Virus record (IMG/VR): IMGVR_UViG_3300033551_000020
Coordinates: 1-37,533 of that record
DNA length: 37,533 nt
Source: a virus
Direction: 5' to 3' (one strand)
The position numbers and the translations under genes were made by a program. Below are positions 7,486 through 29,930 of the stretch, piece by piece. The notes beneath the pieces are model-generated. The model was not told the DNA's origin. It did no database searches and saw nothing but the letters and a program-made list of their open reading frames with translations. The stretch's first letter is position 1, and each line of letters starts with the position of its first letter.

Positions 7486-8754
7486 TTACGTACGGGTGAT
7501 GCCCTCGATCACCGCGTGATTGGCCGGCGCACGCGTCACCATCTCCACGTGCTCGCACCAGTCGGCCGTGAAGGCGTGCACGCGCCCCTCGCCGGTCGTG
7601 ACGCGGTGCAGGATGTTGCCGTCGTCGTCGATCCAGCCGGAGGTGCCCATCTGACGGAAGAAGACATCATCCATCCGCAGCCAGTACATGCGCTGCGGGG
7701 GGCAGTCCTTGTCCTTCACCAGCGGCTTGCCGCCGTACTCGATGGCGTCCTGCCCCGACTTCAGCTCCATCGGGTTCACCTGCCGGCGCTCGCTCACGAG
7801 GTTGTTGACGTGCGTGTCGTGCACGTTCGTGTTGCTGAACGCGACCAGACCGCTCTGGTCCGTGGCCTTGCGGAACAGCGCCGAGTTGGTGGCGCGCATC
7901 GCCCTCTCCAGCAGGATCGGGTCGCCGTTGTACGGCGCCGCGGTGTAGTCCACCACCGTGGACTGGAGCACCGCCCGCCCGGTGCGGGAGAGGTTGAAGT
8001 AGTTGCCGGTGTCCGTGACGAAGCCGGAGACGCCGGTCAGCTCGTTCCCGTCGTTGCGGTTGGTCGAAGAGGAGCCAAGCTGGATCTCTTCGCCGTCCGT
8101 GAGCGTGACCGCCGTGTTCACGGTGATGGTGCCGGCGCTCTCGTCCACGGCGGTGATGGTGCGGGAGACGGCGGCCGTGGCGAACCACACCTCCATGTTC
8201 TCCTTCAGGCACATCACCTTCTCCCAGCCCTCCAGGTCGGACTGCACGTACGTGAGCCCGTAGGGGTCGGAGACGGGGACCGTCGTGCTGGACGTTACCG
8301 CGCCGTCAACCGTGGCGAGGATGGAGTTGCCGTCGCCCCAGCTCTGCCGCTGCTTGGAGAGCCGGTATCCCTCCTTGGTGTCATCCAGCGCCTGCGACAG
8401 CGCGGCCTTGAAGGTGGCGCGGCTCCCCTTGGTGGCGGCGATGGACTGGCCGGTGATGTAGAACGAGCCGTAGAGGCTCTTCACGTAGCCGGTGATGCGG
8501 TCGTAGCGGCCGAAGCCGGGGTTGGGCAGCGAAGCGTTCTCCGCGCGGGCACCGTGGCCCTGCGACGAAGCGGTCTTCAGCGGCTCCACCCAGTTCAGAC
8601 CCACATCCGTGGGCTTGGTCTTGATCCGGGACAGCAGCTCCGTCTTGGTGTTGATGAGGCTGCGGATCTCGTTGACGACGTAGTCCTCCTTCAGGAAGGC
8701 GGCGATGGTGCTTGCCGCACCCGCGTCGTCATAGATTACCTGACGTCCTGCCAT
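7486..8754 (-). CDS. Major capsid protein (422 aa)
   Basis: Identified by order (portal, scaffold, this gene), length and composition. The N-terminus is helical (STIAAFLKEDYVVNEIRSL). A middle beta-rich insert (TITAVDESAGTITVNTAVTL) could be the inserted domain common in P22/N4-type coats. The C-terminus is mixed alpha/beta, as expected for an HK97-type fold (YWLRMDDVFFRQMG, WCEHVEMVTRAPANHAVIEG). It forms the shell around the scaffold encoded just upstream. A hairpin follows the stop. Assignment is by context; I do not recognise a specific coat subfamily. Confidence 0.8.
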   Translation of the reverse strand: MAGRQVIYDDAGAASTIAAFLKEDYVVNEIRSLINTKTELLSRIKTKPTDVGLNWVEPLKTASSQGHGARAENASLPNPGFGRYDRITGYVKSLYGSFYITGQSIAATKGSRATFKAALSQALDDTKEGYRLSKQRQSWGDGNSILATVDGAVTSSTTVPVSDPYGLTYVQSDLEGWEKVMCLKENMEVWFATAAVSRTITAVDESAGTITVNTAVTLTDGEEIQLGSSSTNRNDGNELTGVSGFVTDTGNYFNLSRTGRAVLQSTVVDYTAAPYNGDPILLERAMRATNSALFRKATDQSGLVAFSNTNVHDTHVNNLVSERRQVNPMELKSGQDAIEYGGKPLVKDKDCPPQRMYWLRMDDVFFRQMGTSGWIDDDGNILHRVTTGEGRVHAFTADWCEHVEMVTRAPANHAVIEGITRT

Positions 8755-8822
8755 GGGCGTGTGACTCCTGCTCTGGTTCGTTTGCGTTCAGGCGTCCCCG
8801 GCAGGATGCCAAGGCGCCGTGT

Positions 8823-9959
8823 TCAGTCTCCGAAGAAGCGATCGACCATGCTGTCGATCACGTCATTCTCGCGCTCCGGGCGCACCCACTCCGTCTTGCG
8901 TCCGCCCGGAGCCGCGGTGTTGGGCGGGGTGGTGCGGCGAGCACCGGCCATCTTCGCCGTCCTGCGCACCCGTTCCTGCTGGGCCTTGCGGTCCGCCGCC
9001 TGCTGGGCCTTGGCGGCGTCCCTGCGCTCGCCGGCCAGCCGCTTGGCCACCTTGGCGGCATGCGCCCGCACGTCGGCCGCGGCCACCTTGGTTCCGGAAG
9101 CAGCGGCGCGGCGCAGGAAGTTGTCCACCGAGTCCTGTACGATCTCGATGGACTCCGCCTTGCGCACGCCCAGCTTGCCCGCCTCGTCCTGCACCAGCCT
9201 CCGCACCGTCTCCGCAACCCGCTGCTCGGACACCCGCTGCTGCGTGGCCCGCGTCTGCCCCTCACGATGGTTCTGCATGGCGATGGAGCGTTCGCCGTCG
9301 AACACCCGGCGCGCCCGCGGATCGTCGGAAAGCTCCTGCACCCGGTCCAGCGCGGCGGCCAGCAGCTCCGGGTTGCGGAGGCCGAGATCCACCAGCACCG
9401 TCTCGGTGAACAGCTCCGGCTTGGCGTCGGCCACCGTCAGAAGGAAGTGCTCTCCCCCCGCGGGCGTGGCGAGGTCGGCCATGAACTGCTCGTATTCGGT
9501 CTGGTAGCCACGGGCAGCGGATACCTCCTGTTCCGCGGCCTTGCGCAGCTCCGCCACCGCCTGCGTCTTGCGGGTGTAGTCCCGCAGCAGGCTCTTATAC
9601 GCCCGCTCCGCCACGGCCTTGGCCTTGGGGTCGCGGATGCGGTCGATCTCCTTGCGGTCGAAGGGGCTCTCCTCGTCGGCGTCGCCGTCCTCCTCGTCGG
9701 AGCGCTCGCCAGTGGCCTCGCCCTCGTCCGCCTCATCCTCGCCTTCGTCGCCAAGCCCGGTGTCGTCTTCAAGGTCGGAGTCCGAATCGCTCAAGCCGTC
9801 GCCAAGCGTCTCCAGGTCTTCCGTATCCTCTCCATCGGTCGAGCCCGCGTCGTCGTCAAGAACGGTCCCGTCTTCGTCCAGCGTATCCGCCGCGTCGGTA
9901 CCGCCGAAGTGGCGGTCGAAGATGTCGTCGGGGATGGACGTGCCCTGCATGTCGCTCAT
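8823..9959 (-). CDS. Scaffold protein (378 aa)
   Basis: The sequence has the features of phage scaffolds: a very acidic N-terminal third (repeated Asp/Glu/Gly, about residues 18-95), a long charged helical/coiled-coil middle (AVAERAYKSLLRDYTRKTQ, RKAAEQEVSAARGYQTEYEQ), and a strongly basic Ala/Arg/Gln C-terminal helix (about 285-340) that could bind coat. It lies directly upstream of the capsid gene and downstream of portal, as in P22-like phages. Start ATG 9959 has AGAGG upstream. It should be needed for head assembly and leave the mature particle. Confidence 0.8.
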   Translation of the reverse strand: MSDMQGTSIPDDIFDRHFGGTDAADTLDEDGTVLDDDAGSTDGEDTEDLETLGDGLSDSDSDLEDDTGLGDEGEDEADEGEATGERSDEEDGDADEESPFDRKEIDRIRDPKAKAVAERAYKSLLRDYTRKTQAVAELRKAAEQEVSAARGYQTEYEQFMADLATPAGGEHFLLTVADAKPELFTETVLVDLGLRNPELLAAALDRVQELSDDPRARRVFDGERSIAMQNHREGQTRATQQRVSEQRVAETVRRLVQDEAGKLGVRKAESIEIVQDSVDNFLRRAAASGTKVAAADVRAHAAKVAKRLAGERRDAAKAQQAADRKAQQERVRRTAKMAGARRTTPPNTAAPGGRKTEWVRPERENDVIDSMVDRFFGD

Positions 9960-10078
9960 CTGTGGTGCCTCTGTGCCGGATGATTGTGCCGCAGGGACCA
10001 GAGGTGGACCGTGCTGCGGGAACGGGGTGGAAACTGGTGACTGTGGATGCCTCGTGGGTGAGGATGTACGACAAACTG

Positions 10079-10129
10079 TTTTTGGTCGATACCCTTTGCT
10101 CTTGACTTACGGCATATAGGGATTAGATT
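10079..10129 (+). promoter_or_regulatory. Plus-strand promoter in front of repeat array 1 (copy 2)
   Basis: TTTTTGGTCGAT (10079-10090), ACCCT (10091-10095), TTGACT (10102-10107), a 16-base spacer and TAGATT (10124-10129). The first three blocks match those at 767-797. It points away from the scaffold gene into the array, where no plus-strand coding gene is evident. Confidence 0.6.
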
Positions 10130-10132
10130 GAA

Positions 10133-10390
10133 CCACTGTCGAGCCGACAGTGGAAAGACAACCGAATCATATAAGAGCAAGCCGTGACGTACGAGCAACC
10201 CGGTATGGTCTAAGCGAGTTGAGTAACGGTAGTCACCCGAGTGCAGAACAAGCCGTATTCTAGTGAGTCACCCGAAGGCAGCGAGCGAGCCGTAGGACCC
10301 CAATTCACCCAGCGAAGGGCAGCGAGTCTAAGCAGTTGAGGCCACCGGAAGCATGCAGCGTCACCAATGGCCGTCAGGGACAGGTTCCCG
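10133..10390 (+). repeat. Periodic repeat array 1a (alternating motifs A and B)
   Basis: Motif A (about GAGCCGT; GCCG(T) at 10143, 10181, 10252, 10289, and degenerate near 10219 and 10326) alternates with motif B (about GTCACCCG; ACC(C)G at 10161, 10198, 10235, 10270, 10307, 10344). A recurs about every 37 bp and B falls about 18 bp later. The first A lies in the loop of a perfect 9-bp hairpin, CCACTGTCG (10133-10141) with CGACAGTGG (10145-10153). The period is not a multiple of three and no gene is seen here, so the region is non-coding. It stops near the 3' end of the small membrane gene at 10374. Confidence 0.8.
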
Positions 10391-10673
10391 CGCCCTGACG
10401 GCCGGACTCCTGGTCGTCGCGGGCGCGCTGGGCGCAGAGCCACTGGATCTGCTGCTCCATGTCGGAGAAGCGGGCCTCATAATTCCGGTCCAGCGCGTTC
10501 TGCGCATCCAGGGCGCGTTCCATGTCGGTACGGAGGCGCTGAGTATCCGCCTCGTTCTCGTTGGTGCGATACTCGGTGCGCGCCACGGCCACGAACACAC
10601 CCATGGCCGGGAGGATGAAGGCAAGCACCCAGCGAGGGACACGCAGGTCGTTGTTGTAGTCGGATTCAGTCAT
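10374..10673 (-). CDS. Small membrane-anchored coiled-coil protein (99 aa)
   Basis: Starts at ATG 10673; the longer frame to 10970 runs into the repeat array and is not coding. A short N-terminus precedes one transmembrane helix (WVLAFILPAMGVFVAVA, about 15-31). A charged coiled coil follows (about 40-85; MERALDAQNALDRNYEARFS) and then a polar tail. The shape resembles the protein at 290-703. The gene sits alone between the two halves of the repeat array, on the strand opposite to the array promoter, with no strong ribosome site. Function unknown; a lysis, spanin-like or exclusion role is possible. Confidence 0.65.
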   Translation of the reverse strand: MTESDYNNDLRVPRWVLAFILPAMGVFVAVARTEYRTNENEADTQRLRTDMERALDAQNALDRNYEARFSDMEQQIQWLCAQRARDDQESGRQGAGTCP

Positions 10674-10686
10674 GGCCCTGGAGTCA

Positions 10687-11186
10687 ACCTTCACCGAAGT
10701 GTGCCACCATGCCAAGGTCATCTCCGTAGGTCGAAGCGAGCCGTAACGGCACGAGTCTCCCGTGGTACCCCAGCGAGTCGGCGTATCCAAAGCAAACCGA
10801 AAAAAGGGAACGATCCGAAGTATAGGAGCCACCCGTCGTATCGAAGCGAGTTGAAATTTCAGAGACGCCCGTATTGCAGGAACGAGCCGCAGCGAACGAG
10901 TAACCCTTTGGATAAAGAGCGAGCCAGCGTTTTTGAGACACCCGTCATCGACTAGCAAGCCGTGGTTCACGATACACCCGACGCTACTAGAGCGAGCCGT
11001 GCGAGCTGTGAGTAACCCGTAGCAGACTAGCGAGCCTAGCGCAAACGAGTAATCCGGTGCCCTCTAACGAGCCGTGCCACTTAACTCACCCTGATTGACC
11101 AGAACGAGCCGTGTCCGGGAAGCCACCCTTCTGTCCTTGAACGAGCCGTAGCGTTGGAGTCACCCAACTGCGAAGAACGAAGCGCA
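10687..11186 (+). repeat. Periodic repeat array 1b (alternating motifs A and B)
   Basis: The longest array. A sites (consensus RACGAGCCGT) have their GCCGT core at 10703, 10740, 10777, 10814, 10850, 10886, 10923, 10959, 10996, 11034, 11071, 11108, 11145 and about 11181: steps of 36-38 bp. B sites (consensus GAGTMACCCGT) lie 17-19 bp after each A: 10758, 10796, 10831, 10867, 10903, 10940, 10976, 11015, 11052, 11088, 11125, 11162, with weaker ones at 10687 and 10723. The bases between motifs are unrelated from unit to unit. Both motifs fit the broader pattern GYRASCCGT, so it may be one roughly 18-bp element in two alternating versions. Confidence 0.9.
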
Positions 11187-11220
11187 GGCCGCCTACATGG
11201 ATGTAGGCGGCCTGCGCTTC
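11179..11220. terminator. Perfect 20-bp hairpin between array 1 and the portal gene
   Basis: GAAGCGCAGGCCGCCTACAT (11179-11198) is followed after GG by its exact reverse complement (11201-11220). It lies one base from the portal stop (11222) and just after the last array unit, so it can end leftward portal transcription and rightward array transcription. There is no clear T-run on either side. Confidence 0.75.
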
Positions 11221-11221
11221 C

Positions 11222-13519
11222 TCAGTTCAACAGCCCGCCTCCCGCAGCATCTTCAAGCCCCTGCTCCAGCATGTCCGCCTCGGCCCCCAACGGGTCCAGC
11301 GCGGCCCCCATGCCACCCATCGGCCCCGGCGCGGTTTCTCCGCCCTCCTGCGGCATCCCACCGGGCGCGCCTCCGGCCAGCATCATGGCCTCCTGCATGC
11401 GCTGCTGGTCGATGGCGGCCTTCACCGCAAGGAAACGCTGCTGCAACACCATCTGCGCTTCCTCCGGCCACTCCTTCCACTCAGCGCCGGCCAGCGTACG
11501 TCGATGCTGGCGGTAGTGCACGGCGAGGTTCTGCCACGGCTGCGGGATAACCAGCTCCGTGGGGTCGTCCATCCCGTCCATGCCGCCGAGCAGGCTGATC
11601 TGCTCCTCGATGCGCATGGCCTCGGCCACGTCGCCGTCCTCCGACTCGTACGCCGCCTCCAGCCCGCCGAGCTGGAGCGCACGGGCAAAGCGGGCCGGGT
11701 CGGGCCGCCCCGTCTCCGGGTCGTTGAACAGGACGGGGAAGCGCTGCGCCAGATCCATGATAACCGCCTGCCGCGCAACCTCGCTCCCCGGCCGGCTGCT
11801 CCCCGCCTGCGGGATGACGTCCACCGCGCCCTCCAGGTCGGAGGCGCGGAAGCTCTGCACCATGTAGCGGCGATCCGGCCCCGCGGCGTAGTACAGCCGC
11901 TCGTCCGTGTAGTTGTTCTTGATGAGGATGAGCCACGCACCGGCAAGGTCCGCCACCGCTTCCTCCGCGGAGGCGAGGAAGGGACCAAGGTCCGCGTCGT
12001 CTGCCTCCTGAAGCTGCATGATGGCAATGCCAGCCGTCACCCCGCCCGTGGTCCCGCCCTGCGACACCGCCCGCATCCCCGTCACCCGCTCGAAGTCTAC
12101 CAGCAGGCGTTCCCGCTCCTGATACACGGACGCGGGGAGCGCCGGTACCGGCATGGGCTCCGGCTTGTACGGGTAGGTGTACCGCACCACCTCGCCCGGC
12201 TCCGTGGTGAAGGTGCCCTTCTTGATCCCCGCCTGATTGGGCACCGCGTACTTGCCGTTGGCGAACAGTCGATGGTGCTCCGCGATGCGGGCGGACAGCT
12301 CGTTGTATTCCCGGTTGATCGCGACCGCCGCCTCCAGCTTGCTCATGCCGTGGTAGCGGCCGGGCACGATGATGTCCTGCGTGTGGATCAGGCGGAACAG
12401 GCCGTCCGGCAGATCTTGCGGCTCCTCCAGCAGCACGTCGCCCACGCTCACCCAGTGACGCCCCTCCGGGAAGTCGGCGCACTGCTTCTCGTAGTAGAAC
12501 TTCACCAGCGCCCGTGGCAGGCTCTTCTGCCGCTCGTCCCGCGGCGAGACGCCGAACTCGCTGCCGTCGCTCAGTCGCCCGTCCAGCATGCCGCTGAGGG
12601 TGGAGAGAATCCCCATGACCGTGGACAGGTCTTCCGCCTGCACCTTGGCCGCCGCCTCCGGCCAGCGCTTCGCGATCTCGCGCAGACTCATGGGCTCCGT
12701 GACGATGAACCACGTCACGTCCTCGTCGCAGGTAGCTTCCGGGTTGACGCGCACCTGGAACGGCGAGTAGACGCGGAAGTCCACCTCGCCCTCCTCCACC
12801 ACGTGCGCCTTGGCCCCCGGACGCGGACGCCCATCCTCGCCCAGCATGGGTTCGCCCTCCGCGTCGTAGGGCACCGTCAGGATCTCGGTGGCCGGGACCA
12901 GCATCCCCGGCTCGTCCTCGCTCTCCACCAGCAGCGGCGTGACCCCGTCCGCCTCGTAGACCGGGCACTCCATCTCCGCCTCCAGCCGCTTGATGCGGCC
13001 GGCGCGGGGGTTCCAGAAGGGGAGCGCGTAGCCGTTGCCCGTGAGGATCGTCCAGCCGCAGAAATGACGGTAGCGGCGAGCCGCCTTCAGCTCCGTCCAC
13101 TTGGCCTCGATCAGGTCATCCCCGAGCTGGGCCGCCTTCATGTCCTTGGGATCGGACGACGCCGGCACCACCTGCGTGGCCGGGCGGGTCTTCGTGACCT
13201 TGGCCAGATAGGTGTTGTAGAAGGGGAGGCAGAGATTGTAGGTGGGCTTCAGCTTCCAGAGCGGGTCGGTGCGGTCCACCCGGAAGCCGTCCCGCCCCAG
13301 CCGGTGCCAGTGCTGTCCCACCAGGAACAGCAGGTTCTGCTGCCACGCGAGATGGAGCGGGCGGAGGTACTGCGTCTGCTCATCCCACAGCGCGGTCAGG
13401 TACGCGGCATAGGCGCGACGGGCGGTGTCGTTCCAGCCCGCGGTGCCGGGCAGCACGGTGGGGTACGGAGCCGGGCCGTGGTCGCCTACGGGCGTGGTGA
13501 GGTCGTTGTGCTCGTGCAA
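11222..13519 (-). CDS. Portal protein, P22-like (765 aa)
   Basis: Large portal downstream of terminase and upstream of scaffold and capsid. The N-terminal part has the long helical stretch and the Asn/Tyr/Lys/Arg-Pro segment common in P22-type portals (FYNTYLAKVTKTRPATQVVP, then DPKDMKAAQLGDDLIEAKW). A middle region reads RVNPEATCDEDVTWFIVTEP. The C-terminal part has AVAINREYNELSARIAEHH and a Gln/Met/Gly-rich tail (about 700-765). Length is close to the roughly 725 residues of P22 gp1. It forms the dodecameric DNA channel at one capsid vertex and docks the terminase. The first start codon is TTG 13519 without a clear ribosome site, so the exact start is uncertain. Confidence 0.85.
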   Translation of the reverse strand: MHEHNDLTTPVGDHGPAPYPTVLPGTAGWNDTARRAYAAYLTALWDEQTQYLRPLHLAWQQNLLFLVGQHWHRLGRDGFRVDRTDPLWKLKPTYNLCLPFYNTYLAKVTKTRPATQVVPASSDPKDMKAAQLGDDLIEAKWTELKAARRYRHFCGWTILTGNGYALPFWNPRAGRIKRLEAEMECPVYEADGVTPLLVESEDEPGMLVPATEILTVPYDAEGEPMLGEDGRPRPGAKAHVVEEGEVDFRVYSPFQVRVNPEATCDEDVTWFIVTEPMSLREIAKRWPEAAAKVQAEDLSTVMGILSTLSGMLDGRLSDGSEFGVSPRDERQKSLPRALVKFYYEKQCADFPEGRHWVSVGDVLLEEPQDLPDGLFRLIHTQDIIVPGRYHGMSKLEAAVAINREYNELSARIAEHHRLFANGKYAVPNQAGIKKGTFTTEPGEVVRYTYPYKPEPMPVPALPASVYQERERLLVDFERVTGMRAVSQGGTTGGVTAGIAIMQLQEADDADLGPFLASAEEAVADLAGAWLILIKNNYTDERLYYAAGPDRRYMVQSFRASDLEGAVDVIPQAGSSRPGSEVARQAVIMDLAQRFPVLFNDPETGRPDPARFARALQLGGLEAAYESEDGDVAEAMRIEEQISLLGGMDGMDDPTELVIPQPWQNLAVHYRQHRRTLAGAEWKEWPEEAQMVLQQRFLAVKAAIDQQRMQEAMMLAGGAPGGMPQEGGETAPGPMGGMGAALDPLGAEADMLEQGLEDAAGGGLLN

Positions 13520-17162: not shown

Positions 17163-17216
17163 TGGGTTGGTTGACTTCACTGCACCTAAGCTAGCTTATG
17201 CTGGATGCGAAGTCAA
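17163..17216 (-). promoter_or_regulatory. Repeated minus-strand promoter with dyad, copy 2
   Basis: -35 TTGACT (17216-17211), a 17-base spacer and -10 TAGCTT (17193-17188). The -10 lies in the palindrome AAGCTAGCTT (17188-17197). Compared with copy 1 the two inner bases changed on both sides (T to C and A to G), which keeps the palindrome. The -35 overlaps the terminase stop codon (TTGA). It should drive the small-gene cassette from 17141 leftward. Confidence 0.65.
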
Positions 17217-19996
17217 GGGTCTTGTTCAATCCGCTCCGCAAGCCGCTCCCGGTGTTCACGGACCCGGCGCTCCCGCGCCGTCTCGCCACGCCTCTCCTGC
17301 GTCACCAGCTCCGGGGGTGCCACACGCGCAAGGGTCGCGTAGCGTTCACCGTCCAGCATGTGCATACCTCCAGCCGTGTTCTTGTCCGGACCCGGCGTGT
17401 GCGCCTCATAGGGCTTGGGCTTCTTCCAGCGCAGATTCTTCATCTCCCATAGCAGGCGCGATCCAGCCATGAATTCGCCCTCGTCACTGGCGTCCGCCCC
17501 CGGCCGCAGGTGCACCCATTCGCTGTACAGGTTGTCAAAGATGTACCAGCGCGGCTCGCCCACGGGGCTAGGATCGTCCCGGTGCACCTGCGGCGGCGGC
17601 TCTCTGCGTGTGCTGGGGGCCAACAGGTTTTGCAGCATGCGAATGCCCGCGTCCACCGCCTTTAGCTTCTGGTCGAGCTGCGCGAAGATGAGCCGGGCGC
17701 CGATCTCCGCCGCAGCGGCGTTCAGCTCAATGCTATCTTGGAGCGCGGCGGTGTCGATGTAAATGGTGAGCGTGGCGTCCCGGTCCTCGTTGAGCCACGG
17801 TAGCACGGGGGGATAGAACCGGCTCCGGGTCTTGCCCTCCTCGTCGGTGCTCTCCACCGTACGGCCCCTGGTGAGATCGCGCCACACCGCGGACACCCGC
17901 TGCTCCGCTGTCTCCCCGCTGCCGCTGAAATACTCGTACACGGTGTACACGCGCCCCGTCTCGTCCATCGCCTTGATGACAAGGGCGAAGTAGTACGCCG
18001 AATCGCAACCACCCCACACCTCGTAGTACTGCGGCACCTTGAAGGCAGGGATGACGTGCACCGCCGGGTCGAAGTCCGCATACACGCCCCCGGTGCGGCG
18101 CTTGTAGATGCCGAAGACGCGTACCATCCGCTCCGCCGGGTCTTTGTAGCGGCGGGCGAAGCGGAGTACCTTCTCGCGGTCCATGTGGGGCACTTTAATG
18201 CGACCCACCCCCATGCTGGCCCGATCCCGCTTCTCCAGTGCTTCGTCGTACTCCGCCAGCCCGCCTTCGATCACGTACACGTCCGGGTTGTCGCCCCCCT
18301 TGTTGCCGGCGGGCAGGTACAACCCCTCCTCCATCCAGCCCAGCCCGTTGACCGGCGTGACGGTGATGTAAATCTGCCCGCCCGTGGTCGCCACGCGGGC
18401 GGCGGCCTCGTTGAAGTGCTCCTCCGGCACCGGCTCGTCCAGGTGGATGTGCCCCACCGCGTCACCCGTCCAACTCGTTGCGGCCTGCTCGTACGACACG
18501 AACCAGATCCGGCAGACGCCGCCGTCCACCCGCCGGATCGTGGCGCACTTGTGCTGCTCGCTCCAGTGCACCAGCAGGCGAGGGGGAACGAGAGAGAGGA
18601 AGATCTTCCGCGTCACCTTCTCATAGAAGGGGAAATCGGGGAAGCCAGACCACAGCGTCTCGATGAGCGGCACCCGCTTGTACGGGTGCACCCCGTGGGC
18701 TCGCCAGATGTTGTCAATATGTGCGATTGTCGTGTTGTGGGTAACAATGCAGTTCTCCACAACATAGGTACGCTCCGGGTGCGCCACCTCTATGCAGACC
18801 TGCTCGGTTTCTCCGGCGGGATCGATGCGAACCAAGATGCGTTCTTTGGTAACGCAAGGGTTTCTCTGGCGCGCCAACTTGCGGGAAAGCCTGAATAAAG
18901 GCACGTCGTGGACGCGTATGTTGACGCGGTACGACTCCCGTCCCAGCCGTTTTTCTCCTTTGTACGTGTACGATGTTCTGCGTACTCCCATAACCGCAGT
19001 ACCACCCAACGACTGAGCCAGGAAAACAACCGCATCAGCCAGACACTTTGATGTAGAACTAAACTCAATCTGCCCATTCTTTAGCGCCGATCCATCCGTG
19101 TCCATCAGTCCTTGCAAGAGCGCAAGTCGCTGAGGGGCGTCGTTGTACAAATAGCAGTCGGGGACGTGTTTCTCCCATGACCGCTTGCCCATCAACCCCA
19201 GCCCCCGCAGGGACGCAGTCAACGGGTTTGAACGAACGAAGTCCCCCTTCGCGTTGCGCGCATACGGGGCCGGTATACTCCAGTCGCAGTTTGTTCCTTT
19301 GACTTTTTGCAAACTGACGCCATCAGGAAGCAACCTGCGCACCTCTTCCAACAATTCATCATCAACGCTGGAAAGCCTAACCGCATCTTTGCTGATCCCA
19401 CCGTCGCCCAACAGCACGCCCATCAGATACGGGTCTACCGGCACGTCGCAAGCGGGCAAGCGCACAGCCCCTACGGCGGGTATGCTGAACCTCTGAGGCG
19501 GCTTGGGCCGCATGCCGCCGGGGCTACTCAGAATGTCACGCAGCGAGTACACACCCCATTGCATGTAGCGCCGACCAAAGCTCTGCTTGCCAGTGGCGTT
19601 CGGGTTGGCTTTGACAAAGCGAGCCTGCGGGTCTTTGGCCTTCCACAAATGGTCCAAGCCGCAACGGGTAGAGGCGCCATCGTTGAAAGTAAGCCGGTAC
19701 ACCGGCTTCACACCTTGGGGATAGACCCCTACCACAGGAGTAGGCGTGCCATCTCCAGCTATCACCAAGTCACCCACGCACAACTCTCCCATCTCACGCC
19801 ATCCGCTCGGCGTGAGTACGGGAGTGTCTACCGGCATCTCCTTCCCGTACCGATTTGAGGCGATATTCAGGACAACGGGGTAGTCCGCAATGCAGTATTC
19901 TTCCTGTCCCTCGTGGGGGGTAAACGGAAACTCGGCGGGACGCAGCAAATCCCGCCGAGGAGCCCACGGAGATACCAGATCGTCAATCGCGCTCAC
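17213..19996 (-). CDS. terL: Terminase large subunit with in-frame intein (927-aa precursor)
   Basis: Packaging motor of the phage; the spliced protein would have 558 residues. Residues 1-52 and 422-927 are terminase. The P-loop SNRYGK/TT is split by the intein. Walker B is HIHLDEP with downstream ITVTPVNGLGW. The C-terminal nuclease has acidic residues in WGGCDSAYYFALVIKAMD, TIYIDTAALQD and GPDKNTAGGMHMLDGERY, as in RNase-H-type terminase nucleases. Start GTG 19996. It stands directly upstream of the small-gene cassette and then portal; no clear small subunit is beside it. Its stop overlaps the next promoter. Confidence 0.9.
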   Translation of the reverse strand: MSAIDDLVSPWAPRRDLLRPAEFPFTPHEGQEEYCIADYPVVLNIASNRYGKEMPVDTPVLTPSGWREMGELCVGDLVIAGDGTPTPVVGVYPQGVKPVYRLTFNDGASTRCGLDHLWKAKDPQARFVKANPNATGKQSFGRRYMQWGVYSLRDILSSPGGMRPKPPQRFSIPAVGAVRLPACDVPVDPYLMGVLLGDGGISKDAVRLSSVDDELLEEVRRLLPDGVSLQKVKGTNCDWSIPAPYARNAKGDFVRSNPLTASLRGLGLMGKRSWEKHVPDCYLYNDAPQRLALLQGLMDTDGSALKNGQIEFSSTSKCLADAVVFLAQSLGGTAVMGVRRTSYTYKGEKRLGRESYRVNIRVHDVPLFRLSRKLARQRNPCVTKERILVRIDPAGETEQVCIEVAHPERTYVVENCIVTHNTTIAHIDNIWRAHGVHPYKRVPLIETLWSGFPDFPFYEKVTRKIFLSLVPPRLLVHWSEQHKCATIRRVDGGVCRIWFVSYEQAATSWTGDAVGHIHLDEPVPEEHFNEAAARVATTGGQIYITVTPVNGLGWMEEGLYLPAGNKGGDNPDVYVIEGGLAEYDEALEKRDRASMGVGRIKVPHMDREKVLRFARRYKDPAERMVRVFGIYKRRTGGVYADFDPAVHVIPAFKVPQYYEVWGGCDSAYYFALVIKAMDETGRVYTVYEYFSGSGETAEQRVSAVWRDLTRGRTVESTDEEGKTRSRFYPPVLPWLNEDRDATLTIYIDTAALQDSIELNAAAAEIGARLIFAQLDQKLKAVDAGIRMLQNLLAPSTRREPPPQVHRDDPSPVGEPRWYIFDNLYSEWVHLRPGADASDEGEFMAGSRLLWEMKNLRWKKPKPYEAHTPGPDKNTAGGMHMLDGERYATLARVAPPELVTQERRGETARERRVREHRERLAERIEQDP
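18734..19840 (-). other. Class 3-like intein with LAGLIDADG endonuclease, inserted in the terminase P-loop
   Basis: Residues 53-421 of the precursor. The first residue is Glu, not Cys/Ser/Ala, followed by MPVDTPVLTPSGW and VGDLVIAGDG (block A). Block B reads DHLW with Trp118. The F-block Cys is Cys401 (VCIEVAHPERTY). The end is IVTHN with Thr419, His420, Asn421, then Thr422 as first C-extein residue. Trp, Cys and Thr at these places form the WCT set of class 3 inteins. Two DOD endonuclease motifs are present (LMGVLLGDGG at 191-200, LLQGLMDTDG at 293-302). The base composition looks less GC-rich than the flanks, in keeping with transfer. Confidence 0.85.
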
Positions 19997-20998: not shown

Positions 20999-21651
20999 CC
21001 GTCCTTTCCCAGCAGGCGGCGCACGGCGATAACGAATCGATCCCACCGCGTGGTCTGCCACGTAAGCTCGCGATACCGGCGCAAGAAGCGGCGCTTGGCC
21101 TTCGCGTGGCTCCACGGACGGCGCACGAACAGGTGCGAGTAGGGGGCATGGCTCAGACTCCATCCCTTGACGCGTCCGGGGCCATCCTGCGGCATAAGGT
21201 CGCGCGCCTCCGTCGCCAACATGCGCTCATCGGCGGTGACGACGCAGGCGGGCATCTTGTAGCGGCCCAGTTTGGACCGATCACCAAGCCCGAATCGGTC
21301 CTCCACGCAATCCATCAACTGCGCCTCCATCTCCGCGTACCCCGCCAGCGATGCTCTGGCCGGACGGGGCACATCCACCAGATACGCCTCGCTGGCGTCG
21401 TGCAGCAGGCCGTCCAGCGCGTACCTGCCGCAGCACTCGTACGACACGTGCACGCAGTGCTCAGCCACGGAGTAGTGACGACGAACATGGCCCCCGAACC
21501 TGCATTGTAGAGAGAGCGCGTGCGCGATGTCTTCGATGTCGAAGTCCCCGGAGCGGGGATCAGCGGGATAATACCTGCGTCCGCTGCTGGTGCACCCCCA
21601 ATCACCTACTCGCTCGCGCTCCTCGGTATGAGCATCCGCCTTGGCCGTCAC
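20989..21651 (-). CDS. HD-domain phosphohydrolase, YfbR-like (220 aa)
   Basis: HD motifs are clear: HYSVAEHCVHVSYEC (first His region), GLLHDASEAYLVDVPRP (His-Asp pair and following Asp) and a later Asp region. This matches phage and bacterial HD hydrolases of the 5'-deoxynucleotidase/YfbR type that act on nucleoside monophosphates in a metal-dependent way. A role in adjusting nucleotide pools during infection is usual for such phage enzymes, but the substrate is not shown here. Starts at GTG 21651 overlapping the repressor stop (GTGA). The C-terminus is very basic (HAKAKRRFLRRYRE). Confidence 0.8.
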   Translation of the reverse strand: MTAKADAHTEERERVGDWGCTSSGRRYYPADPRSGDFDIEDIAHALSLQCRFGGHVRRHYSVAEHCVHVSYECCGRYALDGLLHDASEAYLVDVPRPARASLAGYAEMEAQLMDCVEDRFGLGDRSKLGRYKMPACVVTADERMLATEARDLMPQDGPGRVKGWSLSHAPYSHLFVRRPWSHAKAKRRFLRRYRELTWQTTRWDRFVIAVRRLLGKDGCR

Positions 21652-21878
21652 GGCACCGGCTTCCCGCTCACCACGTAGTCCAGCCCCAGCCCCATGGCGC
21701 CACAGATGCGCTTCAGCGTCCCCACCTTGACGCTCTCGATGGGACGCTTTCCCTTCTCGATGGAGCAGAGGTGCGTCACCGACATGTCGGCCGCCTCCGC
21801 CAACTCATCCTGCTTCATCCCCCGTAGCGCCCGCGCCGCCTTGATGCGGTTGCCGGGGGTGGACGTCTCGCTTGCCAT
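21648..21878 (-). CDS. XRE-family repressor-like regulator (76 aa)
   Basis: Residues about 8-65 form a Cro/cI-type helix-turn-helix: GNRIKAARALRGMKQDELAE, ADMSVTHLCSIEKGKRPIES, then TLKRICGAMGLGLDYVV. No dimerisation or protease domain, so it is a minimal DNA-binding regulator. Start ATG 21878 is chosen because the longer frame covers the promoter and an operator-like repeat. It is divergent from the lipoprotein gene and leads the HD gene (GTGA overlap). A role in lysogeny or control of the accessory region is likely; the target is unknown. Confidence 0.85.
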   Translation of the reverse strand: MASETSTPGNRIKAARALRGMKQDELAEAADMSVTHLCSIEKGKRPIESVKVGTLKRICGAMGLGLDYVVSGKPVP

Positions 21879-21899
21879 TTTTATCTTCTCTCCCTCGCT

Positions 21900-21953
21900 G
21901 ATGATACAAAATGTCATCCCAACTAAATGTAGTGCGCGGACGCAAGAAGTCAA
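21900..21953 (-). promoter_or_regulatory. Promoter and operator of the XRE gene
   Basis: -35 TTGACT (21953-21948) and TACATT (21931-21926, 16-base spacer), followed by an imperfect inverted repeat with GATGA (21900-21904) and TCATC (21914-21918) around the start point. The -35 and its TTGACTTC extension match the promoters at 14.0, 17.2 and 33.4 kb. The repeat is a candidate site for autoregulation. Confidence 0.55.
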
Positions 21954-22018
21954 CAGGGATGAAGCCGTATCCACGTCTCACGTAGCACACCGCCGGAACC
22001 CTTGCAACCGTCACTCTC

Positions 22019-22047
22019 TTGCCCATCATCAACCACCATCCTATCTT
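22019..22047 (+). promoter_or_regulatory. Promoter of the lipoprotein gene
   Basis: TTGCCC (22019-22024), a 17-base spacer and TATCTT (22042-22047) on the plus strand, about 60 bp before the lipoprotein start. It is divergent from the XRE promoter within the same 229-bp gap. Confidence 0.45.
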
Positions 22048-22107
22048 GTGGGCCGTCTCTTGTTTTAGCCACGGACTTGCATCTCTCGCCACAAAAGGAG
22101 CAACAGA

Positions 22108-22335
22108 ATGAAGTACACGCGCATCAACTTCGGGATCGCAGCCTGCGTCGCCGCCTTCTCGCTGGCAGCCTGCAACGACACCCCCACGCACGCCCGCGGC
22201 TGCTCGTCTCCGGACACCTGCGACGCCAGCGCGAACGGCGTTCTCGGCGGAGGCGGCGGACGTACCGACACCATCCCGCAGCCCTCCAGCATGGGCGACT
22301 CCACCGGCGTGCTCGGGGGCGGCGGAGGGCACTGA
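22108..22335 (+). CDS. Small secreted lipoprotein with duplicated GVLGGGGG motif (75 aa)
   Basis: Residues 1-22 form a lipoprotein signal peptide: MKYTRINFG, a hydrophobic stretch, and lipobox SLAAC with Cys22. The mature part is short and soluble: two further cysteines (GCSSPDTC), then NGVLGGGGGRTD and, at the very end, TGVLGGGGGH, separated by a Pro/Ser linker. Start ATG 22108 has AAGGAG seven bases upstream, and the gene has its own promoter and a strong terminator. Independent expression on the opposite strand is typical of a prophage moron, for example superinfection exclusion; a signalling propeptide is another possibility. Confidence 0.75.
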   Translation: MKYTRINFGIAACVAAFSLAACNDTPTHARGCSSPDTCDASANGVLGGGGGRTDTIPQPSSMGDSTGVLGGGGGH

Positions 22336-22355
22336 GCCTAGATCGGGGTCCGGTA

Positions 22356-22394
22356 AAATCCAGAGGGGCGGCAAGGCGCCGCCCCTCTGGATTT
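22356..22394. terminator. Bidirectional terminator between convergent genes
   Basis: A perfect 17-bp stem, 22356-22372 with 22378-22394 (AAATCCAGAGGGGCGGC and complement), and a 5-base loop. It follows the plus-strand lipoprotein gene by 20 bp and touches the stop of the minus-strand gene ending at 22393. Leftward it runs into TTTTACC. Confidence 0.8.
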
Positions 22395-22599
22395 ACTCGC
22401 CTTCGTAATTAGCAAGAGCGGCGCGCACCTGCGCCATCCGCTCGCGAAGGTCAGCCACCTCTTGCGCGAGCGCTAAGACCAAGTTGTCACCGATACAGTC
22501 CCTCCACGGCACGCCGTGACGCTCCGCCCGCACCGATCCATCCACTCGCTGCTCCACAGCATATTCGCCCACCACCACGCGCAACCTCGCTTCTCCCAT
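22393..22599 (-). CDS. Hypothetical small protein with C-terminal coiled coil (68 aa)
   Basis: Start ATG 22599 lies behind AGAGGAGTAGGAGAA; the longer frame is a shadow of the Cys-rich gene. N-terminal beta strand (ARLRVVVGEYAVEQRVDGSV), then HGVPWRDC and a helix (VLALAQEVADLRERMAQVRA). Last gene before the bidirectional terminator. Function unknown. Confidence 0.6.
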   Translation of the reverse strand: MGEARLRVVVGEYAVEQRVDGSVRAERHGVPWRDCIGDNLVLALAQEVADLRERMAQVRAALANYEGE

Positions 22600-26454: not shown

Positions 26455-26684
26455 GGTTACGTTCAAGACGTACGGGTGACTCTACACCTACCGACTCGTT
26501 CCCGATATTCGGGTTACTCACTTGACACGGCTCGCTTCGCACGTTTCGGGTTACTGCTCATCCTCGACTCGCTCACCACATACGGTTGACTCACAGTAGC
26601 AGGCTCGCTTCCAAGATACGGGTCACTCAAATTCGGCGGCTCGCTCACACACTCCGGGTTACTATTCGGTCACGGCTTGCTCGT
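26455..26684 (-). repeat. Periodic repeat array 2 (inverted relative to array 1)
   Basis: On the plus strand the reversed B motif (CGGGTKACTC) starts at 26473, 26510, 26547, 26583, 26619 and 26655, and the reversed A motif (CGGCTCGCT) near 26492, 26528, 26565, 26601, 26637 and 26673. Each series steps by 36-37 bp and they alternate at about 18 bp, as in array 1 but on the other strand. The last A unit supplies the final codons and stop of the 152-residue gene (ACG AGC AAG CCG TGA). The 230-bp gap holds no other gene. Confidence 0.9.
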
Positions 26685-27131: not shown

Positions 27132-28421
27132 TCAGTCCCGCCCCACCATCTGCCACGGTCCCACGTACGACGCCTCGGAATGGCCCAGCACGGTGATGGC
27201 GTAGGGCTGACCCACCGGCAGGCCCAGCGCTTCCCGCCACACTTGCCAGAGATGCGACAGGAAAAGCTTCTCCGTCTTGCGCAGCGCCGTCAGGTGCTTG
27301 CGCCCGTCCGCCCAGCCCACGCGCTCGCGGTCCAGCTTCGCCCGCTCGGCGCGGTACACCTGCTCGTACTTGCCCCGCGGCACCTTCAGGAAGCCAGTGC
27401 CTACCAGATACATCTGCTTCTTCACGTAGGCGTCGTAGGTGGACTTCTGCCCGCGCGCCGGCTTGGGCTGGGCCGCACGCACACCGTCCTCCGGGCCGGC
27501 CACCTTCACCAGGGCGCCGGTGCACGAGGCGGTGCTTCCGAGCGCCTGATGCTTGCCGGTCACGTTGTAGCCCACCGGCCAGTCGCGCGTCATACCGCAG
27601 GCGGCGCAGGCGTAGCGCTCGCCGGGCACCGTGGCGAGGCCCGCGTACGCCCAAAACGCGGACGCCGTGGTCGCCTTCCTCGGGTCCAGCCGCGCCAGCA
27701 GCTTGCACGCGAGCGTAGGCCCGATCCCCTTCACCTGCGACAGCCACGGCCAGCAAACGTGTTCTTTCAGCGCACGCTCCATCTCCTTGCGAAGCTCCTG
27801 CTCCTCGGACCACGCGCGGTGGTACATGCGGCCCAAGATCGGCACCGGCCCGCTCTCCTCGCCGCTGGCGATGGCGCCCAGCATCTCCTCCACTCCCGCG
27901 ATCTCTTCCGTCCCCTCACCCCACGTCTCGTCACGGCCCTGAAGCACAGCGCGAATCTGCTCGCCGCACCCGATCCGCTTCCGCTGCGCCTGCTCATAGC
28001 CGTCCGCGAGGAATCGCAGCATGCGGTCGTTCTCGGACTGCGGGGGCGCCTCGGGGGCGGAGGACGGGAAAGAATCCAGATCAAACTCGCCACGGGCCGT
28101 CCTTTCCTCCATCTCCATGGCAAGACCCGCAACAAAAGCAGAATGCCTACTCTGCGGATACTGGCTCCACGTCCGCAGTTCCTCCAGCCCCTTCTTGCCG
28201 AATCCGCGAATCAGCAGCAGCGCTTCGTCCGACAGTCGCGCAGCCGCGCCGGGTGTGGCAAAGCCTTCGCTGCGCAGCGCATTGGACGTACGCGCCGACA
28301 GATCGGCCCAATCCTCGTCCCTCCCGGCCACGGCGGCTCCGTGGCGCGACGAGAAGAACGTCACGTCCGTACGCTCCCCGCTTGCCAGCTCCTTCAGCGC
28401 TTCCCTCTCGATGGTGCTCAT
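27132..28421 (-). CDS. RNA-polymerase-alpha-CTD-like plus IS110-type HhH protein (429 aa)
   Basis: Residues about 37-85 resemble the RpoA C-terminal domain: DLSARTSNALRSEGFATPGA, then LLLIRGFGKKGLEELRTW (helix-hairpin-helix). Residues about 226-265 contain a second HhH, LSQVKGIGPTLACKLLARLD, followed by AFWAYAGLATVPGERY, the pattern of the Transposase_20 C-terminal domain of IS110/IS116 transposases, and CAAC (272-275). The DEDD/RuvC-like catalytic domain of IS110 is not seen. DNA binding at junctions or at promoters is therefore more likely than transposition. Start ATG 28421 is chosen because a promoter covers the longer frame. Confidence 0.7.
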   Translation of the reverse strand: MSTIEREALKELASGERTDVTFFSSRHGAAVAGRDEDWADLSARTSNALRSEGFATPGAAARLSDEALLLIRGFGKKGLEELRTWSQYPQSRHSAFVAGLAMEMEERTARGEFDLDSFPSSAPEAPPQSENDRMLRFLADGYEQAQRKRIGCGEQIRAVLQGRDETWGEGTEEIAGVEEMLGAIASGEESGPVPILGRMYHRAWSEEQELRKEMERALKEHVCWPWLSQVKGIGPTLACKLLARLDPRKATTASAFWAYAGLATVPGERYACAACGMTRDWPVGYNVTGKHQALGSTASCTGALVKVAGPEDGVRAAQPKPARGQKSTYDAYVKKQMYLVGTGFLKVPRGKYEQVYRAERAKLDRERVGWADGRKHLTALRKTEKLFLSHLWQVWREALGLPVGQPYAITVLGHSEASYVGPWQMVGRD

Positions 28422-28447
28422 CTTCGGTTTCCTTGCTTCCGGTTGGT

Positions 28448-28477
28448 AGTATACAAATTGCACTGCGACATAACCAA
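28448..28477 (-). promoter_or_regulatory. Promoter of the alpha-CTD/HhH gene
   Basis: On the minus strand TTGGTT (28477-28472), an 18-base spacer and a good -10 TATACT (28453-28448), in the short gap between the sliding-clamp stop and the start at 28421. Confidence 0.55.
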
Positions 28478-28512: not shown

Positions 28513-29688
28513 TTACTGCGGACCTGCCATCGTGGATGCCGCGGTCGGGGAGGCGGGGTGCAGGGGCGCCAGCAGCAGCGTGTAGGGCGGCGAGCCCTCC
28601 GGCACTGCGGCCGGGGTGATGATGAGCGGCTGGCCGGGATGGCCGGGCAGGTCGATCCGCACCTTGTCCCCCGGCACCTTGTCCAGCAGGGCGAGCATCT
28701 GCTTGGCGTTGATGCCGCAGGTGAAGTCCGGCCCGTCGCCCTCCACGTCCACCAGATCGCGCGCGCGGCCGTTGCGGGTGGCGCTGTACAGGTGCAGCTC
28801 CTTGGCATGGCACACCGCGAAACGGACCGGGTGGATGTCCTCACCACTCGCCACAACGTCCATTCGCATCAACGCTTCGATCAGCGGCTTGCGCTCCACC
28901 TCGATCCAGGAACAGAGCTGCTGGCGCGCGCGGTTGAACACGTCGTCCACGGCGGAGGGGAACAACTCGGCGAGCGTCTTGGCGTGGTACTCCCGGTCGC
29001 CGGCCCGGAATGAGGCCCAGCCCTTGTGCACGGAGACTCCCACCGAGTCCAGCGGCTCAAAGAAGCGCTGGATGTTGGCGACGGACGGAGGCAGCAGGCT
29101 GATTTCGGTCCCCGGCTCCGGCTGCCGGCCGCCCTCGTACGGAACCTGAAGCTCCGCGAACACGGCGCTGTCCCCGGCGATGACCTGCATGTGCGTGGGC
29201 TTGAAGCGCAGCGCCATCCCCAGCAGCGCCGGCCGTCCCATGTCCGGGGTCGCAACCGCGAACGCCACGTGGTCCGCGGCGAGGTGCAGGTACTCCCCCG
29301 GCACGTACAGGATCGGGTCGTCCGGGGCGCCACCCACCGGCGGGAAATCGTCCACGTCCATCTGCGGGATCTCGTACCGACTGCGGCCCACAGCGATTGC
29401 CACCATCCCCTTGCCCTCCACCGCGAACGACACCTCCAGCCCGCTCGGCTTGCGCAGCGCCTCCGCCAGCATGTGCGCGCCCAGCAGCAGCCGTCCCGGA
29501 TGGCGTACCGTCGCCGCGACCCGCACGCGGGCGGCGGTCTGGATGTCCGTCCCGGTCAGCGTCACGTACCCTCCGGACGCCTCGATGAACACGCCCCGTC
29601 CAGCGGTGATGGACAGGCGGGGGTTGATGCTCCGCATCACGAGGGCGAGGGCGGACGAAAACGAACTCGCGTTGGCTGTGAATTTCAC
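28513..29688 (-). CDS. dnaN-like: DnaN-type sliding clamp (391 aa)
   Basis: The layout fits the three-domain bacterial beta clamp. Domain 1: KFTANASSFSSALALVMRSI, RLSITAGRGVFIEASGGYVT. Domain 2: YEIPQMDVDDFPPVGGAPDD, HLAADHVAFAVATPDMGRPA. Domain 3: EYHAKTLAELFPSAVDDVFN and the C-terminal LLLAPLHP, with a Gly/Ala tail. Length is a little above the 366 residues of the E. coli protein. It would tether a polymerase at the phage fork and may replace the host clamp. Start GTG 29688 has AAGGAGG five bases upstream and overlaps the upstream TGA (GTGA); the 41 extra residues of the longer frame are a shadow. Confidence 0.85.
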   Translation of the reverse strand: MKFTANASSFSSALALVMRSINPRLSITAGRGVFIEASGGYVTLTGTDIQTAARVRVAATVRHPGRLLLGAHMLAEALRKPSGLEVSFAVEGKGMVAIAVGRSRYEIPQMDVDDFPPVGGAPDDPILYVPGEYLHLAADHVAFAVATPDMGRPALLGMALRFKPTHMQVIAGDSAVFAELQVPYEGGRQPEPGTEISLLPPSVANIQRFFEPLDSVGVSVHKGWASFRAGDREYHAKTLAELFPSAVDDVFNRARQQLCSWIEVERKPLIEALMRMDVVASGEDIHPVRFAVCHAKELHLYSATRNGRARDLVDVEGDGPDFTCGINAKQMLALLDKVPGDKVRIDLPGHPGQPLIITPAAVPEGSPPYTLLLAPLHPASPTAASTMAGPQ

Positions 29689-29930
29689 CGCTTCCTCCTT
29701 TTCATGTCCGCCGCTCCCTCCATCAACCACGCGCCGATAGCGATCAACCAGCACAACGCCCACACTACTAGCGGAATCCAGACCGGAGACAACACCCACC
29801 ACCACGACCAATCCAGATTCCCGCTCACCTTCATCCCCACCACCGCGCCCATCACACTGCCAAGCAGTGCCCTTGTTATGATTCCATCAACGCCAAACGG
29901 GTTCGCGCCGTCGTGCTTCCATTTATTCAT
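29685..29930 (-). CDS. Two-span membrane protein (81 aa)
   Basis: ATG 29930 lies behind GGAGGGGAAG. There is one Gly/Val-rich hydrophobic segment (ITRALLGSVMGAVVGMKV) and a second, strongly hydrophobic Trp-rich segment (WVLSPVWIPLVVWALCWLIA), ending in a very basic tail (KRRKR) that overlaps the clamp start. A membrane anchor for replication proteins would be one reading, but only the position supports it. Confidence 0.65.
   Translation of the reverse strand: MNKWKHDGANPFGVDGIITRALLGSVMGAVVGMKVSGNLDWSWWWVLSPVWIPLVVWALCWLIAIGAWLMEGAADMKRRKR

What the first reader, a model, noticed from the sequence alone, without database searches (positions are those of the whole stretch)
10133..11186. Long non-coding array of two alternating motifs with a 36-38 bp period
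Seen directly: motif A (RACGAGCCGT) at 14 consecutive positions between 10703 and 11181 with steps of 36-38 bp, and motif B (GAGTMACCCGT) 17-19 bp after each, plus about six more units at 10143-10344. The bases between motifs are not conserved. About 36.7 bp is 3.5 helical turns, so successive A sites lie on opposite faces of the DNA. Both motifs fit GYRASCCGT, suggesting one protein (or a dimer of two related domains) that coats the region. It lies between scaffold and portal, where P22-like phages normally have no gap. No iteron, centromere or operator family known to me has this pattern. Candidates: replication or partition site, packaging or condensation site, or repeat RNA.
Basis: seen in the sequence. 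Interest (0 to 1): 0.9.

Follow-up and report, generated by a model that had tools for sequence, protein, structure and literature searches.

The report
Phage guide-RNA array (TIGR) with TasA
The regularly spaced repeats are a phage-encoded array of dual-spacer guide RNAs (a TIGR array) for a TasA protein encoded 16 kb away, a recently discovered RNA-guided DNA-binding system, here with the TasA protein unusually fused to a domain resembling the RNA polymerase alpha tail.

Summary
At 10138-10347 and 10735-11185 two 10-nt motifs alternate every ~18 bp with a 36-38 bp period (z 4.1 and 6.6 against dinucleotide shuffles), and the bases between them vary. It is not a protein-coated DNA site. TasA is a nuclease-less Nop-domain protein. 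Its family profile matches TasR (1e-62) and TasH (1e-43), and its predicted structure hits TasH and TasR first, then IS110 transposases. Of 80 homologous tas loci, 53 have a 36-nt array nearby, against none at control lags. Two features depart from published TIGR-TasA: orphan arrays more than 15 kb from tasA, and an N-terminal domain like the RNA polymerase alpha-subunit C-terminal domain. I infer an RNA-guided DNA binder without cleavage, possibly acting on transcription. No target was found in its own or related genomes. Known kind of system, new variant architecture.

The parts
10102..10129 (+). promoter-like site TTGACT-16-TAGATT, just upstream of the first array and in its sense
   Evidence: only sigma-70-like site found in 9950-11300 (0.4 expected); same hexamers at the same place in relative G002. 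Consensus match only
10138..10347 (+). TIGR array 1a, 6 units
10374..10673 (-). 99-aa ORF with a hydrophobic segment between the two halves of array 1; not part of the array
   Evidence: read from sequence
10735..11185 (+). TIGR array 1b, 12 units plus truncated last edge repeat
11179..11220 (.). perfect inverted repeat, 20-nt arms, fused to the truncated last edge repeat; probable array terminator, between array and portal gene
   Evidence: analogous palindromes close array 1b in G002 and array 3 in G001 and G002
26473..26681 (-). TIGR array 2, 6 units, near tasA
27132..28463 (-). tasA: nuclease-less Nop-domain (IS110-like) RNA-guided effector, 443 aa
28173..28304 (-). RNA polymerase alpha-CTD-like helix-hairpin-helix domain of TasA (aa 54-97)
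   Evidence: Pfam PF03118 28.7 bits, above its 23.8 cut-off; alignments to alpha-CTD chains
27135..28034 (-). Nop domain region of TasA (aa 144-443), with coiled coil and Transposase_20 core

Best explanation
The repeats are TIGR arrays: DNA that is transcribed into a precursor RNA and cut within each edge repeat into ~36-nt tigRNAs (half edge, spacer A, loop, spacer B, half edge). A dimer of TasA, encoded at 27132-28463, would bind one tigRNA through the edge and loop box C/D motifs. The two ~8-nt spacers would pair with opposite strands of a ~16-18 bp DNA target. Because this TasA has no RuvC or HNH nuclease domain, the complex would bind and bend the target without cutting it. The N-terminal alpha-CTD-like domain most likely gives this version an added contact, with DNA or the transcription machinery, so the likeliest outcome is RNA-guided interference with, or regulation of, a foreign or host locus. 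Shown here: array anatomy, TasA homology and fold, array/tas association across phages, alpha-CTD similarity. Inferred from the published system: transcription, processing, dual-strand targeting. Inferred only: the effect on transcription and the identity of the targets.
For: Unit of 10-nt edge (RARCGAGCCG), ~8-nt spacer, 10-nt loop (GAGTMACCCG), ~8-nt spacer, matching the published definition (8-12-nt alternating repeats, ~9-nt spacers, 16 nt in all for SpTIGR). Array 1b ends in a truncated edge plus hairpin, as published arrays do. tasA in the window: PDB phmmer hit to TasR 9mty E 2.5e-17; family profile to TasR 1e-62 and TasH 1e-43; AlphaFold2 core pLDDT 90-98 over most of the Nop core; Foldseek top ten all TasH/TasR (best 9.6e-10), then IS621/ISCro4, then weak Nop5. 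53 of 80 homologous tas loci have a 35-37-nt array within 2.5 kb, 0 of 80 at control lags. The third base of box C co-varies between edge and loop repeats across arrays (Fisher p 4e-5), as expected if one symmetric dimer reads both. Arrays found independently of protein homology in unrelated phages, several with a tas gene beside them.
Against: No RNA data: transcription and processing are untested. The window repeats are more degenerate (36-38 bp, several mismatches per unit) than most arrays in the set. No target found. Array 1 is 16 kb from tasA and could be a decaying remnant, although array 1 is identical in the window and G001 and arrays 1 and 3 are largely recognisable in G002. The alpha-CTD-like domain has low model confidence (pLDDT about 46-60).
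Confidence: 0.95

Rival explanations
1. A DNA-site array (iterons, centromere-like, packaging or condensation site) bound by a protein on alternate faces of the helix.
For: Regular 36-38 bp spacing of related motifs in a late-gene region.
Against: The motif set is directional, split into two repeat classes, occurs in several scattered blocks in both orientations, and travels with tas genes in many unrelated phages. Published arrays of this anatomy are transcribed into guides (PMC12045711).
Confidence: 0.03
2. TIGR array whose orphan blocks (array 1, and array 3 of relatives) are no longer used: only the tas-proximal array is active and the distal ones are relics.
For: Degenerate repeats; array 1 is 16 kb from tasA; published TIGR loci were sought within 5 kb of tas.
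Against: Orphan arrays keep a promoter-like site (array 1) and terminal palindromes, and conserve repeats and many spacers between G001 and G002, which are only about 73-98% identical elsewhere.
Confidence: 0.2
3. The alpha-CTD-like part is only a generic helix-hairpin-helix DNA-binding module and the system simply blocks replication or transcription of competitors by RNA-guided binding, with no contact to RNA polymerase.
For: HHH_5 also scores (21.5 bits, below cut-off); helix-hairpin-helix domains are common DNA binders; the TIGR authors suggest blocking as a TasA role.
Against: PF03118 scores above its curated cut-off while HHH_5 does not, and the top solved-structure matches of the N-terminal part are all RNA polymerase alpha subunits.
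Confidence: 0.45

Closest known systems
TIGR-TasA (e.g. Flavonifractor plautii FpTIGR; Faure et al. 2025, PMC12045711)
   Same: Dual alternating ~10-nt repeats, ~36-nt unit, nuclease-less Nop-domain effector, phage location, array ending in truncated edge plus hairpin.
   Different: TasA has an N-terminal alpha-CTD-like domain, whereas the paper describes TasA as a solo Nop domain lacking accessory domains; arrays are dispersed, with one 16 kb from tasA here and a third elsewhere in relatives; unit length drifts between 36 and 38 bp.
TasR / TasH TIGR nucleases (PDB 9mty, 9w04)
   Same: Nop core by profile and fold.
   Different: No RuvC or HNH domain found in the window protein.
IS110-family transposases (IS621, ISCro4)
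   Same: Transposase_20 segment and weaker fold match.
   Different: No DEDD catalytic domain detected; transposon ends were not looked for; associated RNA is an array, not a single bridge RNA.
CRISPR arrays
   Same: Repeats separated by variable spacers.
   Different: Two alternating ~10-nt repeats and ~8-nt spacers rather than one 25-36-nt repeat with similar-sized spacers; no cas gene recognised among the proteins scanned.
Box C/D snoRNPs (Nop5/56/58)
   Same: Nop fold, box C/D-like repeat ends.
   Different: Fold match weak (E 0.35 and above); no fibrillarin or L7Ae recognised; a tailed phage, not a cell.

Membership tests
TIGR-Tas | Array of two alternating 8-12-nt repeats separated by ~8-12-nt variable spacers, unit about 36 nt | tested here: met
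   (10+8+10+8, 36-38 bp)
TIGR-Tas | Nop-domain Tas protein encoded in the same genome | tested here: met
   27132-28463 minus
TIGR-Tas | Array upstream or downstream of tas | tested here: met
   array 2 starts ~450 bp downstream of tasA in the window, about 12 bp downstream in G001
TIGR-Tas | Box motifs of edge and loop repeats co-vary | tested here: met
   third base of box C, Fisher p 4e-5 over arrays of homologous loci
[quoted passage not shown]
   array 1b: truncated edge plus perfect palindrome, without a clear U tract in the array sense; not seen for array 2
TIGR-Tas | Transcribed and processed into 36-nt tigRNAs bound by Tas | not testable with these tools
   needs RNA sequencing
TIGR-Tas | Spacers A and B pair with opposite strands of one DNA target | tested here: inconclusive
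   no target above control level in own or related contigs, nor in IMG/VR for one unit
TasA class of TIGR-Tas | No nuclease domain | tested here: met
   Pfam and Foldseek show alpha-CTD-like and Nop parts only
TasA class of TIGR-Tas | Solo Nop domain without accessory domains | tested here: not met
   PF03118 at aa 54-97 above cut-off in window and G002 proteins; hence filed as a variant of TasA
CRISPR array | Single repeat of 25-36 nt with spacers of similar size | tested here: not met

The most novel reading that the evidence does not exclude
A phage RNA-guided transcription regulator: dispersed tigRNA arrays program a nuclease-less TasA whose RNA polymerase alpha-CTD-like domain recruits, or blocks, the polymerase at chosen host or competitor promoters.
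Probability: 0.25. Interest if true: 0.9.

Novelty: new variant of a known kind. Interest (0 to 1): 0.62.

Why it matters
What TasA proteins do is an open question stated by their discoverers. A TasA fused to an RNA polymerase alpha-CTD-like domain gives a concrete, testable hypothesis (RNA-guided control of transcription by a phage). Arrays far from tasA show that searches limited to a few kilobases around tas miss guides. Three related phages with different tas-proximal arrays, two of them beside a nearly identical tasA, offer natural material on how such arrays gain and lose units.

Tried and rejected
Rfam: no match. tRNA/tmRNA: none. DNA similarity to known phages: none. Self-targeting in both spacer orders, gaps 0-2, up to 3 mismatches: no excess over control orders. 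Targets in related and other Tas-phage contigs: a few exact 16-mers, not clearly above control. IMG/VR scan for the conserved array 1b unit 8 in both orders: no hit. Spacer pairs of the Microcystis phage against known phages: only matches at E 6, which is chance level. Plasmids with tasA: none. Genome collection with the tasA sequence: none; with the alignment: query too variable. Alpha-CTD part in other Tas loci: only the window's own family. The low-confidence first model was superseded by one from a deeper alignment. The portal-gene control region also showed significant self-match at lag 33 (codon period), so the array claim rests on lags 36/37 and on motif parsing, not on autocorrelation alone.

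Full report
Check of the observation. The two motifs alternate exactly as described. A parser that allows only alternating edge and loop repeats finds 12 units plus a truncated 13th edge at 10735-11185 and 6 units at 10138-10347 on the plus strand. Self-match at lag 37 is 0.399 in both blocks, with z 6.6 and 4.1 against 1000 dinucleotide shuffles, and peaks also lie at 18, 55 and 73. A 99-aa minus-strand ORF at 10374-10673 separates the blocks, so the whole span is not non-coding.

What it is. A pattern scan of IMG/VR for one edge plus one loop repeat, independent of any protein, returned 31 stretches; nine carry clear clusters of three or more motifs, some in close relatives of this phage and some in unrelated contigs, and in several of the unrelated ones an IS110-like ORF sits beside the array. 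This is the anatomy of a TIGR array as defined by Faure et al. 2025 (PMC12045711): two alternating 8-12-nt repeats, short split spacers, units of about 36 nt, an end with a truncated edge repeat and a hairpin, near a Nop-domain Tas protein. In the window the edge repeat is RARCGAGCCG, the loop repeat GAGTMACCCG, spacers about 8 nt each, as in SpTIGR with 16 spacer bases in all. Array 1b runs from its truncated last edge straight into a perfect 20-nt-arm palindrome (11179-11220), and the only promoter-like site of the region lies just before array 1a in its sense (kept in G002).

The effector. The minus-strand ORF 27132-28463 encodes 443 aa. Against solved structures it matches TasR 9mty (E 2.5e-17) and TasH (5e-6). 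A profile of 52 homologues gives TasR 1e-62, TasH 1e-43 and IS621 7e-6. The AlphaFold2 model has pLDDT 90-98 over most of the Nop core, and Foldseek ranks ten TasH/TasR chains first (best 9.6e-10), then IS110-family transposases, then weakly Nop5. No RuvC or HNH domain was found, so it is of the TasA class. Residues 54-97 match the RNA polymerase alpha-subunit C-terminal domain above Pfam's curated cut-off (PF03118, 28.7 versus 23.8 bits; also in G002), and the best solved-structure matches of the N-terminal part are all RNA polymerase alpha subunits. In those alignments an Arg, an Asn and a Gly-x-Lys motif are kept; from my own knowledge these correspond to the DNA-contacting R265, N268, G296 and K298 of E. 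coli alpha, which I did not test.

Association across phages. Of the 80 best homologous tas loci in IMG/VR, 53 have a 35-37-nt periodic array (self-match at least 0.45 in 220 bp) within 2.5 kb, against 0 of 80 at control lags. Across arrays with clear consensus the third base of box C is the same in edge and loop repeats (25 A/A, 6 G/G, 3 discordant; Fisher p 4e-5 on the A/G cases), as expected if one symmetric dimer reads both repeats. The window family is G/G.

Dispersed arrays and turnover. Two relatives, G001 (64.9 kb) and G002 (64.3 kb), carry the same two array sites and a third one (G001 55859-56087, G002 8528-8757) that lies outside this 37.5-kb fragment. Arrays 1 and 3 are more than 15 kb from tasA in the window and G001 records as given (in G002 the records' linear coordinates put array 3 far from tasA too, but the topology is unknown). 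Array 1 is identical in the window and G001. In contrast the tas-proximal array differs almost completely between them although the tasA side is 99.5% identical from 27131 on; only the last unit is shared in part, and single spacers recur in new combinations. The whole segment around array 2 is mosaic between these phages, so recombination with other phages could explain this without a dedicated acquisition mechanism.

Targets. No spacer pair matches its own or a related genome better than control arrangements, in either order, with gaps of 0-2. So simple self-regulation of this phage is not supported, within the limits of the known pairing rule, which was established for TasR and TasH. The order in which the two spacers lie on the target is my derivation from the published 8-nt 3' overhangs; I therefore tested both orders. 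Spacer G+C is 51% against 65% for the genome, and over 35 loci it tracks locus G+C (Spearman 0.69) but lower; this is unexplained.

Mechanism. Most likely the arrays are transcribed, cut within edge repeats to ~36-nt tigRNAs, loaded on a TasA dimer, and used to bind a 16-18 bp target through both strands without cutting. Transcription, processing and dual-strand pairing are taken from the published system; the effect on transcription is inference from the alpha-CTD-like domain alone, which I put at about one in four.

Verdict. The array belongs to a kind known since 2025. What is unusual is the alpha-CTD-like fusion, found only in this phage family among the loci searched, and the dispersed arrays. 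I could not read the supplementary tables of the TIGR-Tas paper, so I cannot exclude that this family was listed there.

Noticed in passing
L071 5632-6831, L072 5566-6822, L073 5563-6837 (Gordonia phages LonelyBoi, Spooky, BENtherdunthat): Tas homologues annotated as hypothetical protein or transposase; the first ~100 codons hold alternating short motifs (such as GGCACCCAA, GACACCCAT, GGACCCAAC) at about 18-nt steps, so a TIGR-like array may lie in frame inside the tas gene.
   Followed up: partly
L031 11238-12698: A 16-unit TIGR array of exact 36-nt units is open in the same frame as the downstream tas gene, with no stop codon and no in-frame ATG between array and tas; translation of tas may start within the array.
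   Followed up: partly
L074 5950-7030 (Microcystis phage Mvi-JY20, PP438412.1 about 21367-22447): An isolated phage with a 241-aa TasA annotated as hypothetical, followed by a TIGR array of about 9 units and a terminator; a culturable system for experiments.
   Followed up: partly
L028 / L060 (G007) 200-1700: A long TIGR array in which some units are replaced by repeated longer elements with stem-loops (CACGTCTATCAGCTGTCGCTGATTTCCGCGCGGCAGATT...), perhaps a mix of dual-repeat and stem-loop array types.
   Followed up: no
17213-19996 minus: Terminase large subunit ORF of 927 aa with a LAGLIDADG match and a weak Hint match inside: probable intein with homing endonuclease.
   Followed up: no
28513-29811 minus: Phage-encoded DNA polymerase III beta clamp (DnaN-like) directly upstream of tasA.
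   Followed up: no
arrays of 35 Tas loci and window: Spacer G+C tracks phage G+C but is lower (51% against 65% here).
   Followed up: partly
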